Origin: Flavobacteriales bacterium
Lineage (GTDB): Bacteria > Bacteroidota > Bacteroidia > Flavobacteriales > JASBRU01
Reading direction: 5' to 3'
Assembly (NCBI GenBank): GCA_030149285.1
Contig: JASBRU010000002.1
Span: 124,001 to 188,000 of the forward strand
Length of the DNA stretch: 64,000 nucleotides
Position numbers and translations under genes: made by a program. The first letter of the stretch is position 1; every line of letters starts with the position of its first letter. The notes below the pieces were generated by a model, which made no database searches, was not told where the DNA came from, and saw only the letters and a list, made by a program, of their open reading frames with translations. Positions 3,021-42,327 of the stretch are shown here, in pieces.

Positions 3021-3260
3021 ATGCCAAAAAATCATATATCAAATAACATCAGAACACTACGGTTTTTGAATGAGGAGTTGACCCAGCAGCAGTTGGCTGA
3101 TAAAGTAGGTGTTACCAGACAAACAATTGTAGCTATAGAAAAAGCAAAGTATTCGCCAACATTAGAGCTGGCTTTTAAAATAGCGGCAGTTTTTAATGTG
3201 CCCTTAAACGAGGTGTTTACTTATAATCCTGATGCTGGAGCAAAAGATTCTAAGAAATAA
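3021..3260 (+). CDS. XRE-family HTH regulator
   Basis: This 79-residue protein is essentially a lone Cro/CI-type helix-turn-helix. QQLADKVGVTRQTIVAIEKAK is the recognition region (residues about 23-43). The tail ends PLNEVFTYNPD, as in the YozG-like small regulators. It starts one base after the stop of the membrane-protein gene and probably regulates its own operon. No clear operator palindrome was found upstream of 2546. Confidence 0.85.
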   Translation: MPKNHISNNIRTLRFLNEELTQQQLADKVGVTRQTIVAIEKAKYSPTLELAFKIAAVFNVPLNEVFTYNPDAGAKDSKK

Positions 3261-36803: not shown

Positions 36804-37742
36804 TTATCGAAAAGCTTCAATAATTTTATTAGCTAATACGGTAGCCATTTTTTCATTCGATTCGTGTGTCCAACCGGCAATATGTGAAGATAGGATTACT
36901 TTATCAGACTTTATTAAGTATTCAAAGTCTTTTGGTAGTTGTTGGCTATACAAGTTTTCAAAGGAGCTTTTTTCGTACTCCAATACATCTAGGCAAGCAC
37001 CTTTTATTTTACCTGATTTTAGATGTTTTACTAAGGCTGTAGTTTCAACTACTTTTCCTCTGGCTGTATTTATTAGGTAAATATCCTTTTTAAAATTACT
37101 GAGGAAGTCATCATTTACTAGGTAATGGTTTTCATTAGTATGAGGGATGTGTAGACTTAGAATATCGGCTTGTTCAAATATATCTTCCATTGAAGCTTCG
37201 GTAGCGTACTCGTTTCCATAAGAAGTTTTGTATTTATCGTATGCCAATATATTACAATTAAAACCGGCTAAACGTTGGGCAAATGCAGTACCCATATTTC
37301 CATAACCGATAATGCCTACAGTTTTTCCTGTTACTTCATGTCCACGGTTTTCTTCACGTTTCCATATACCATTTCTTACTTCGGTATCAGCTTTATTAAG
37401 GTTGTTAAATAGGCTTAATATCATGGCTAAAGCATGTTCGCCAACCGCATCTCTGTTGCCTTCCGGTGCTCCAAAACATTGTATGTTTTTAGCTTGCGCG
37501 TAATCAAGATCTATGTTTTCCAGTCCGGCACCAACTCTGCCTATAAATTTTAAGTTGCTAGCACAATCAAGGAATTCTTTGTCTATAGCAAACCTGCTAC
37601 GGATGATAATACCATCGTATTTATGAAGGATGTTTTGTATTTCGCTTTTGGTTGAGGTATAGTCTTCATCACAAATAAAGCCTGCATTCTTAAGCTTTAT
37701 TAGTAGTAATGGGTGTGTTGTATCTATAAAAAGTACTCGCAA
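36804..37742 (-). CDS. D-isomer 2-hydroxyacid dehydrogenase (phosphoglycerate dehydrogenase-like)
   Basis: The 312-residue NAD-dependent enzyme has the Rossmann motif GIIGYGNMGTAFAQRLAGF, the substrate-arginine region IGRVGAGLENID, INTARGKVVETTALV and the catalytic His in LSSHIAGWTHES. It lacks the C-terminal ACT domain of long SerA enzymes. A role in serine synthesis is likely but other 2-hydroxyacids are possible. It converges with lysC with only 2 bases between stops. Confidence 0.88.
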   Translation of the reverse strand: MRVLFIDTTHPLLLIKLKNAGFICDEDYTSTKSEIQNILHKYDGIIIRSRFAIDKEFLDCASNLKFIGRVGAGLENIDLDYAQAKNIQCFGAPEGNRDAVGEHALAMILSLFNNLNKADTEVRNGIWKREENRGHEVTGKTVGIIGYGNMGTAFAQRLAGFNCNILAYDKYKTSYGNEYATEASMEDIFEQADILSLHIPHTNENHYLVNDDFLSNFKKDIYLINTARGKVVETTALVKHLKSGKIKGACLDVLEYEKSSFENLYSQQLPKDFEYLIKSDKVILSSHIAGWTHESNEKMATVLANKIIEAFR

Positions 37743-37758
37743 GGGACTAATTTTTTTA

Positions 37759-37766
37759 CAAAGATA
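37759..37766 (-). promoter_or_regulatory. -7 element of the 2-hydroxyacid dehydrogenase gene
   Basis: On the minus strand TATCTTTG is an exact TAnnTTTG match, 16 bases upstream of the start at 37742. No -33 TTG is seen at the usual distance. The structured inverted repeat at 37786 begins just upstream. Confidence 0.55.
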
Positions 37767-37785
37767 CAGTTTAAAGAAGTGAATA

Positions 37786-37902
37786 ATAAGTCTCTGTCAA
37801 CTAAAGCTATCAAGAGCCGAGCGTTTTTAAAAAAGAACGAATTTATTTTTTTGGAGCTAAGTTGACAGAAGACTTATAGCTATGAGAATTAAAAACGCTC
37901 TT
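37786..37902. repeat. Interleaved long inverted repeats in a divergent intergenic region
   Basis: Arm A (37786-37808, beginning ATAAGTCTCTGTCAACT) pairs with A' (37855-37877) with one or two bulges over about 22 bp. Arm B (37814-37830, AAGAGccgagCGTTTTTAA) pairs with B' (37889-37902, TTAAAAACGCTCTT), leaving a 5-base bulge. The order A-B-A'-B' makes the two stems mutually interlocked (pseudoknot-like) or alternative. The rest of the 294-base gap to 38036 is AT-rich and holds no gene that I can see. It could be a decayed small mobile element, a regulatory site or a structured RNA. Confidence 0.75.
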
Positions 37903-38036
37903 ACATCTAATACGCAAAAAAAGTGCCATTAGTTTGTAGAGATGTGAAAAAAGTCAATAAAATCAAGGGTTTTAATCATAAGCTTCTGTAAATTAGTGGT
38001 GTTAAAGGATAATAAAATTTAGAAAGATAATCCTGA

Positions 38037-38930
38037 ATGAAAAAAATACTACCTATTGTCATATTTTCTTTGCTTTTTGTAAAGATGTCAGCTCAGCCAA
38101 CACCACCACATTTATATGTTCCATTGGCTGTAGATAGTGCAAACTGGATAGTATCTTATGAATCATCCGCCGAAAGTAGTCCTTATCAATACAATGTGTA
38201 TTCTGTAGTTGGCGATACAAATGTTGCTAATACTGACTATAAAAAAATATATCTAACACAATTGTCAAGAGTTTCACAAACTCCCCCTCAATATTCTGTA
38301 GGTAATACTCAATTATTTGCTTTTGTAAGAGACAGTTTTCAAGTAGCATCTGTTTTTGCTATGCACCCTACTGCCGGGTTTTTATGTGAGCCAAATAGTA
38401 ATACAGAGTATTTGTTATATGATTTTTCTGTACTTAAAACAGATACCTTGAATAATTGCCTAACCAATAACACAGATTATATTGTTGATAGTACCTATTT
38501 GCAGTTTGAAAGCGCAAAAAGTAGACGGTTTTATGTGAATAACAACAGTAGTATGTATTTTATAGAAGGTATAGGTTCTACTAGAGGTTTGTTTGAACCA
38601 AACTTTGATTTGACAAATGATACCACTTCTTCAAATGAATATTGTTATGGTACATTAGCAAGTTGCATTAGTGTTGCATTAACTACAGAAGAATTGGCTT
38701 TTTCTAAGCTTTCAATATACCCCAATCCGACTTCCAGTAACATTCTCGTAAAAGGTTTAGATGAGAATTATAGCGGGTTTATTGTCAATTCATTTGGGCA
38801 GCTTGTAAAAAGTATTGCAAGTTTTAGTACTGAAATTAATTTATCGGGTTTACCAAAAGGGGTGTATTTTTTAAGAATATATCATGCTAAAAATAATGAG
38901 TCTACTATGAAAAAAATAATAGTGTATTAA
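38037..38930 (+). CDS. Small T9SS type A cargo protein
   Basis: The 297-residue protein has a signal peptide (MKKILPIVIFSLLFVKMSAQ), a beta-rich body with no known domain and a C-terminal type A sorting domain (LSIYPNPTSSNILVKG to KGVYFLRIYHAKN). The latter directs it through T9SS. The body contains two cysteine-bearing segments (FLCEPNSNTEY, YCYGTLASC). Function is unknown. Its stop codon directly abuts the stop codon of the convergent gene. Confidence 0.88.
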   Translation: MKKILPIVIFSLLFVKMSAQPTPPHLYVPLAVDSANWIVSYESSAESSPYQYNVYSVVGDTNVANTDYKKIYLTQLSRVSQTPPQYSVGNTQLFAFVRDSFQVASVFAMHPTAGFLCEPNSNTEYLLYDFSVLKTDTLNNCLTNNTDYIVDSTYLQFESAKSRRFYVNNNSSMYFIEGIGSTRGLFEPNFDLTNDTTSSNEYCYGTLASCISVALTTEELAFSKLSIYPNPTSSNILVKGLDENYSGFIVNSFGQLVKSIASFSTEINLSGLPKGVYFLRIYHAKNNESTMKKIIVY

Positions 38931-40698: not shown

Positions 40699-41232
40699 AT
40701 GAAATTTGATAATTACACCATTCGCTTACTGAGAGCCGATGACTATGAGGCTTATTTTTCTATGGTAGAGAGCAATAGACCTAGACTTGAAGATTATTTT
40801 GCAGGCACTGTTTCTAAAACCAAAACCATAGAAGATACCAAGGCCTTCTTGCAAGAGTCAATGCAAAAGATTGAGAATAGAATGTATTTTCCGCATGTAA
40901 TTATTGATGATACTACAGGGCAGTTTATAGGCTTTATGGATTTGAAAAATGTAGATTGGTCTATACCAAAATCTGAAGTTGGTTGCTATATTGATGGAAA
41001 CTATGCAGGAAAAGGAATTACTTCTAAAGCCTTTGAATTATTTGTGAATCATTGTTTTGAAACCTATGAGTTCAGTAAACTATATTTAAGAACTCACCCA
41101 ACTAATACTGCTGCTAAAAGATTGGCAGAGAAGTATGGTTTTGTAAAAGAGGGCTTGATAACAATGGAGTATAGAACTACTGCAGGTGTTGTGGTAGATA
41201 TGTTGTATTATGGGAGGTTAAGGGAAGTTTAA
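40699..41232 (+). CDS. RimJ/RimL-like GNAT acetyltransferase
   Basis: The ATG at 40699 (MKFDNYTIRLLRADDYEAYF) is preferred over the track start at 40657 because it begins at the conserved first strand. The 177-residue protein has the RimL-type pattern: GFMDLKNVDWSIPKSEVGCYIDGNYAGKGIT with the acetyl-CoA loop, then LRTHPTNTAAKRLAEKYGFVKEG. Substrates of this group are ribosomal N-termini or other amines. The target is not known here. The 3' end overlaps the convergent propeller gene by 15 bases. Confidence 0.88.
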   Translation: MKFDNYTIRLLRADDYEAYFSMVESNRPRLEDYFAGTVSKTKTIEDTKAFLQESMQKIENRMYFPHVIIDDTTGQFIGFMDLKNVDWSIPKSEVGCYIDGNYAGKGITSKAFELFVNHCFETYEFSKLYLRTHPTNTAAKRLAEKYGFVKEGLITMEYRTTAGVVVDMLYYGRLREV

Positions 41233-42327
41233 TCTATTCCCATTTCGGGTAACACTAACTATAGTGTCTCCTTTGTAATGGAATAGACCTTTATAGCCTC
41301 CAAACCAAAACTTTCCTTCATTATCTTCATAAATGCATTGTATGGCACCACTTTCTAGACCATCATTTGCGTTGAAATTTGTAAAGGATTCTCCATTATA
41401 CTGATAAACTCCATGATGTTCTGCCGGAAACCAAATGTTTCCTTTGTTGTCTTTAAATATACTCCATACTTCATCGCCAGTAATAACTCCGTCTTGGGTA
41501 AAATTTGTAAACGATTTTCCATCGTACATACTTATGCCTTTATAATGTGTGGCAAACCAAATGTTTCCATTATTATCTTCTAGTATATCATTTACACCAT
41601 TATTGCTTAGTCCATCTTTCTCCGAAAGATTAGTTAAAGATTTTCCATCATAGATAAAAGCACCACCATTGGTGCCAAACCACATATTTCCTTTGCTATC
41701 TTCTGTAATGCTGTGTACAAGTTTAGCACCTGTAACACCTCTATTAGGATCAGGTTTAGTATCTGGGAGCGTAAAAGGGATGAATTTCTCTCCATCAAAA
41801 TAACATACTCCGCCATGAGTAGCAATCCATAGTTTTCCTTTACTGTCTATTACAATGCTCCAAATATCATTATGAACTAAACCATCCTTCTCGGTGAAGT
41901 TTGTGAATGATTTCCCGTCATATTTACTTAGTCCGCTATTCGTGCCGAACCATAGATTGCCTTCTTTATCTTCTACAATACCTCTTACAGCCACCCCAGC
42001 AAACCCCTCATCAATAGATAAGTATTCTAGAGAGTCTCCATTGTAGCGTATTACACCATCGCCATTAGTACCAAACCAGAAGTCTCCGTTTTTATCTTCA
42101 AATATTCTTCGTACAAATCTGCTTATAGGTTCAGGTTTAGGTAAAAGAGGTCCGTTATAGCTCGGGTTTTCATCTGTAAGCTTTGGATCTGCTTTGGTTT
42201 CACTACTATCATCTTGGGTAATAGTATTTGTTTGCCCTTTACAAGAACTTATTAAAATTGAAAATAGTAATAGGAGACAGATAGACGCACCTGTCTTATG
42301 CCACTTAGTGCCAAATATTGTTTTCAT
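41218..42327 (-). CDS. Stand-alone seven-bladed propeller lipoprotein (Reg_prop repeats)
   Basis: The 369-residue protein has a lipoprotein leader with lipobox ISSC followed by KGQ. Seven two-component-regulator propeller blades follow, each of the form xxxIxEDxxGxxWFGTNxG (for example GIVEDKEGNLWFGTNSG and SITEDSKGNMWFGTNGG). Such blades normally form the periplasmic sensor of hybrid histidine kinases. Here no kinase, TM or DNA-binding domain follows, so this is a free surface or periplasmic propeller, perhaps a polysaccharide-binding or signalling partner. Confidence 0.88.
   Translation of the reverse strand: MKTIFGTKWHKTGASICLLLLFSILISSCKGQTNTITQDDSSETKADPKLTDENPSYNGPLLPKPEPISRFVRRIFEDKNGDFWFGTNGDGVIRYNGDSLEYLSIDEGFAGVAVRGIVEDKEGNLWFGTNSGLSKYDGKSFTNFTEKDGLVHNDIWSIVIDSKGKLWIATHGGVCYFDGEKFIPFTLPDTKPDPNRGVTGAKLVHSITEDSKGNMWFGTNGGAFIYDGKSLTNLSEKDGLSNNGVNDILEDNNGNIWFATHYKGISMYDGKSFTNFTQDGVITGDEVWSIFKDNKGNIWFPAEHHGVYQYNGESFTNFNANDGLESGAIQCIYEDNEGKFWFGGYKGLFHYKGDTIVSVTRNGNRLNFP

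What the first reader, a model, noticed from the sequence alone, without database searches (positions are those of the whole stretch)
37786..37902. Interleaved inverted repeats (A-B-A'-B') in a divergent intergenic region
Two long inverted repeats occupy the 294-base gap: A/A' of about 22 bp with bulges and B/B' of about 14 bp with a 5-base bulge. They are interleaved, so both stems together would form a pseudoknot-like shape or two alternative folds. The element ends about 20 bases from the -7 element of the 2-hydroxyacid dehydrogenase gene. It resembles neither a terminator nor a known riboswitch that I can recall. It might be a structured RNA, an operator or a degraded miniature mobile element.
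Basis: partly seen in the sequence, partly recalled or inferred. Interest (0 to 1): 0.5.

Follow-up and report, generated by a model that had tools for sequence, protein, structure and literature searches.

The report
Orphan interleaved hairpins between divergent genes
Between two genes that point away from each other in an uncultured Flavobacteriales-like bacterium there are two real, overlapping sets of self-complementary DNA that could fold as a knotted RNA, but this is the only copy found anywhere, so whether it does anything cannot be told from sequence alone.

Summary
A/A' (37786-37808 / 37855-37877, 21 pairs) and B/B' (37819-37830 / 37889-37900, 12 perfect pairs) are interleaved in the 294-bp divergent gap between a D-2-hydroxyacid dehydrogenase gene (-) and an orphan T9SS-secreted protein gene (+). 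Both exceed dinucleotide shuffles, and none of the 35 strongest hairpins in 464 kb of the same genome has a comparable crossing stem. It is not a terminator, Rfam family, tRNA or 6S RNA. It is single-copy, lacks a target-site duplication, and has no detectable relative in several hundred genomes of its order and class, or in phages or plasmids. No other genome of its family is held, so covariation could not be tested. The + strand folds better than the - strand, and a second + strand hairpin follows (37925-38000), mildly favouring a structured + strand RNA. But no good + strand promoter or terminator was found, and the loop folds no better than shuffled loops. I lean slightly to a lineage-specific structured RNA or leader (0.36) over non-functional local inverted duplications (0.33) and an operator (0.2). 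A MITE is unlikely. The feature is real and locally rare; its function is unresolved, and interest is low to moderate.

The parts
37786..37808 (+). arm A (5' strand of stem A)
   Evidence: ATAAGTCTCTGTCAACTAAAGCT, 21 pairs with A'
37819..37830 (+). arm B (5' strand of stem B), inside the loop of stem A; alternative register 37814-37830
   Evidence: GAGCGTTTTTAA, 12 perfect pairs with B'
37855..37877 (+). arm A' (3' strand of stem A)
37889..37900 (+). arm B' (3' strand of stem B)
   Evidence: TTAAAAACGCTC
37786..37877 (+). 92-nt imperfect hairpin, 35 predicted pairs on the + strand (-33.4 kcal/mol; -25.2 on the - strand)
37925..38000 (+). second predicted hairpin (17-bp outer helix with several G-U pairs), seen on the + strand only; weak
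   Evidence: z -2.5; no such fold on -
37760..37767 (-). TATCTTTG, Bacteroidota-type -7 box of the dehydrogenase gene; -33 box absent or poor
   Evidence: 6 of 6 to TAnnTTTG; best -33 match 2 of 4
36804..37742 (-). D-2-hydroxyacid dehydrogenase (phosphoglycerate dehydrogenase-like) gene, TTG start
38037..38930 (+). secreted protein with T9SS type A sorting domain; matches in relatives are weak and lie mostly in the C-terminal sorting region

Best explanation
A lineage-specific, single-copy structured element read as RNA from the + strand. SHOWN: two crossing stems beyond chance; the + strand gives a predicted 92-nt, 35-pair hairpin whose apical 5' arm (B) is also perfectly complementary to the sequence just 3' of the hairpin (B'). 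INFERRED: in a + strand transcript the hairpin forms first (A, B, local partner, A'). B' is made last and may either stay free or invade the weak apical part to give an H-type pseudoknot of similar stability (my estimate from the component energies: about -30 against -33 to -35 kcal/mol). The RNA would be the 5' leader of the T9SS-cargo gene at 38037 or a small RNA; acting as a fold switch or as a stable 5' structure is the likely job.
For: Stems beyond shuffles. Whole-region fold z -4.4 on +, -2.95 on -. + strand hairpin 8 kcal/mol better than - because of G-U pairs. The 294-nt gap folds as + RNA with z -4.0 and 0 of 200 shuffles. A second + strand-only hairpin lies downstream, z -2.5 against 0.05. 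The strongest fold among divergent gaps in the ORF-defined sample; those ranking near it include tRNA genes.
Against: No + strand TAnnTTTG promoter reaching 6 of 6 in 37600-38100 and no terminator. Given stem A, the loop folds no better than shuffled loops (+ z -1.3, 49 of 500). No Rfam hit. No relative by DNA or covariance model, hence no covariation evidence. No transcript data.
Confidence: 0.36

Rival explanations
1. Functionless DNA: two local inverted duplications (quasi-palindromes) made by polymerase template switching, or a rearranged direct repeat whose spacer was inverted across A/A', not yet decayed.
For: No relatives, no copies. Template switching is documented to homogenise inverted-repeat arms and to invert spacers (PMC8604942). 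Long imperfect non-terminator hairpins without shared sequence recur in intergenic regions of this genome. A weak third A-like stretch nearby (37979-37998) suggests local duplication. The A-to-A' and B-to-B' offsets are nearly equal (69 and 70 bp).
Against: Needs two events at one spot, with both products still largely paired. A single switch would give A-B-B'-A' order, not A-B-A'-B'. No other such crossing pair among the 35 strongest stems in 464 kb.
Confidence: 0.33
2. DNA operator region of a divergent promoter pair: A/A' and B/B' are paired binding sites, about 69-70 bp apart in inverted orientation, for regulators that loop DNA and control the dehydrogenase gene and possibly the T9SS gene.
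For: Arm A starts at about -31 of the predicted dehydrogenase start site, just upstream of the -7 box, and the -33 box is poor, as expected of a regulated promoter. Divergent gap. Similar spacing of both pairs.
Against: Arms are 23 and 12 nt with one-base indels between A and A', longer than ordinary half-sites and out of register. 69-70 bp is about 6.6 helical turns, not a whole number. The arms occur nowhere else in the genome sample clearly above background. The promoter of the + gene was not identified.
Confidence: 0.2
3. Degraded miniature mobile element (MITE) or an invertible segment with A/A' as terminal or recombination repeats.
For: Inverted repeats flank a short non-coding segment.
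Against: Single copy in the genome. No TSD at the A or B boundaries; only a chance-level 5-mer TAATA around the whole element. No match in phages, plasmids or viral contigs beyond chance-length words. Arms differ by indels, unlike typical invertase sites.
Confidence: 0.06

Closest known systems
H-type pseudoknot RNAs in general (riboswitch or small-RNA pseudoknots)
   Same: A-B-A'-B' order of complementary segments; close competition between nested and knotted folds
   Different: No Rfam family matched. Stem A is unusually long (21 pairs). No promoter, terminator, relatives or covariation.
6S-Flavo RNA (RF01685)
   Same: Long imperfect hairpin of about 110 nt in Flavobacteriales-type genomes
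   Different: Not matched at this locus even at E 10. The genome has its own weak 6S-Flavo-like candidate elsewhere, contig C5:322126-322258.
Quasi-palindromes formed by template switching
   Same: Nearly identical inverted arms with small indels in non-coding DNA
   Different: Two interleaved pairs rather than one quasi-palindrome

Membership tests
Intrinsic terminator | G+C-rich stem, short loop, followed by a T run | tested here: not met
   0 sites on either strand; the loop of A is 46 nt
Any Rfam 15 family (riboswitch, 6S, ribozyme and others) | covariance-model score at or above the gathering score | tested here: not met
   best hits are chance snoRNA and miRNA models, E 2-10; only two tRNAs elsewhere in the window
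Structured non-coding RNA (new) | fold more stable than dinucleotide shuffles | tested here: met
   z -4.4, + strand; z -2.95, - strand
Structured non-coding RNA (new) | conserved stems with covariation in relatives | not testable with these tools
   no homolog in 398 order genomes (DNA and model), 395 class genomes (model), phages or plasmids; only one genome of its family is held
Structured non-coding RNA (new) | own promoter and transcript | tested here: inconclusive
   no 6-of-6 TAnnTTTG on the + strand; transcription cannot be tested
MITE | multiple copies in the genome | tested here: not met
   (genome 76% complete)
MITE | target-site duplication | tested here: not met
   none at the A or B boundaries; 5-mer TAATA around the whole element is at chance level
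Operator with dispersed sites | arm motif recurs upstream of other genes | tested here: inconclusive
   no match clearly above the reversed-sequence control in 464 kb of the genome; B core at four other places in the whole genome, context not examined

The most novel reading that the evidence does not exclude
A new, lineage-restricted pseudoknotted regulatory RNA (a leader of a T9SS-secreted protein or a small RNA) in a poorly sampled Flavobacteriales-like family.
Probability: 0.2. Interest if true: 0.45.

Novelty: new member of a known kind. Interest (0 to 1): 0.2.

Why it matters
If expressed, it would be an orphan structured RNA of a kind that comparative pipelines miss because it has no sequenced relatives. 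If not, it is a clean example of inverted repeats produced by local rearrangement. Either way one RNA-seq track or one close relative genome would settle it; nothing here changes a general picture.

Tried and rejected
Copies in the own genome by DNA, pattern, Smith-Waterman and covariance model: none. Relatives by DNA in 398 order genomes: only 24-41-bp AT-rich chance hits. Covariance model built from one sequence (given twice) in 398 order and 395 class genomes: only itself. Upstream regions of the dehydrogenase gene in relatives: the neighbours looked at differ and are often co-directional; best stem 36 in 46 regions, weaker than here. Phages and plasmids: chance-length matches. 16-mer of arm A' in viral contigs: 14 hits with at most two bases of extension, about the number expected by chance; B arm: none. 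6S-Flavo: not here, weak candidate elsewhere. Third A-like copy at 37979-37998 and a homologous unit between the two hairpins: 7 of 300 shuffles in one of six comparisons, not convincing. Small ORFs in the gap: at most 28 codons, no sign of a gene. Similarity of this hairpin to other long intergenic hairpins of the genome: none convincing.

Full report
Observation. The gap between the dehydrogenase gene (36804-37742, -) and the T9SS-cargo gene (38037-38930, +) is 294 bp and 29% GC. It holds stem A (37786-37808 with 37855-37877, 21 pairs, interrupted by single-base bulges and one small internal mismatch) and stem B (37819-37830 with 37889-37900, 12 perfect pairs). Order along the + strand is A, B, A', B'. 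Against dinucleotide shuffles of the gap, A scores 39 (mean 23.3, sd 3.0, max 31) and B scores 28 (second-best stem mean 19.2, sd 2.1, max 25). A 12-bp match between the A loop and the next 60 nt is reached in 10 of 5000 shuffles. In 464 kb of the same genome A is among the strongest handful of stems, and none of the other 34 strongest stems examined has a crossing partner above score 19, against 28 here. So the feature is real and locally unusual.

Folding. The + strand of 37770-37920 folds at -37.2 kcal/mol (z -4.4, 0 of 200 shuffles) and the - strand at -31.5 (z -2.95). The nested + strand fold is a 92-nt hairpin of 35 pairs, of which the apical part uses the B arm; the - strand lacks most of that apical part (-33.4 against -25.2). 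Stem B alone is worth -11.6 with its loop, or -15.9 as a duplex, and a bare stem A -23.2. A pseudoknot with both stems would then be within a few kcal/mol of the nested fold (my estimate, not computed with a pseudoknot program). A second hairpin (37925-38000) exists only on the + strand (z -2.5, against 0.05). These strand differences favour a + strand RNA but are modest: with stem A fixed, the loop folds no better than shuffled loops (49 of 500).

Surroundings. TATCTTTG at 37767-37760 on the - strand matches the TAnnTTTG -7 box of flavobacteria, which sits at -12 to -5 (PMC9723704). That puts the dehydrogenase start site near 37755 and arm A at about -31; the -33 element is poor. The element is therefore outside the dehydrogenase transcript from this promoter. 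On the + strand no 6-of-6 -7 box was found between 37600 and 38100 and there is no intrinsic terminator. The + gene is a secreted protein recognised only by its T9SS sorting domain.

Relatives. The genome (2.05 Mb, 9 contigs, 76% complete) is the only one held for its family. That it belongs to Flavobacteriales or near it is an inference from its relatives and was not tested by a tree. The dehydrogenase is conserved in the order (59 of 60 genomes; best relatives 60-65% identical), but the upstream neighbours examined differ. Neither DNA search (398 genomes) nor a covariance model of the hairpin (398 order and 395 class genomes, overlapping sets) finds a relative. Nor do phages, plasmids or viral contigs beyond chance words. 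Rfam has no match. There is one copy in the genome and no TSD.

Reading. A MITE, terminator, known riboswitch and 6S RNA are excluded or very unlikely. What remains is a lineage-specific structured RNA, a functionless pair of local inverted duplications (template switching is known to make and homogenise such arms; PMC8604942), or an operator of the divergent promoter. Long intergenic hairpins that are neither terminators nor tRNAs occur elsewhere in this genome without shared sequence, so stem A alone is not exceptional; the crossing stem B is. I put a structured RNA slightly ahead on strand-specific stability, with low confidence. The call can only be settled by a close relative or by transcript data.

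Noticed in passing
37925-38000: Second hairpin on the + strand with a 17-bp outer helix rich in G-U pairs. Its arms weakly resemble A' and A (37979-37998 reads ATAAGCTTCTGTAAATTAG against ATAAGTCTTCTGTCAACTTAG).
   Followed up: partly
L156:2965-2985 and 3093-3113 (own genome, contig C5): 21-pair inverted repeat between divergent genes (a YceI-like gene on the + side): both arms run into a start codon (CATGTTTTTATTCTTT / AAAGAATAAAAACATG), with a -7-like TATATTTG inside. Looks like a mirrored promoter and leader, or an invertible segment.
   Followed up: partly
own genome contig C5:322126-322258 (-): Weak 6S-Flavo (RF01685) candidate, 38 bits, E 2.6e-4, well below the gathering score of 85; matches in relatives (up to 76 bits) also fall below the cut-off, so the Rfam model may be too narrow for this order.
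   Followed up: no
L159:621-750, L162:1346-1475, L143:5253-5382, L155:10523-10652, L159:15935-16064 (own genome): Other long intergenic hairpins with strong fold z-scores that are not tRNAs; most have no T run after the main stem. None shows convincing similarity to the element studied.
   Followed up: partly
41218-42327 (-): Protein with partial similarity to the T9SS protein PorZ (70 bits against a cut-off of 260).
   Followed up: no
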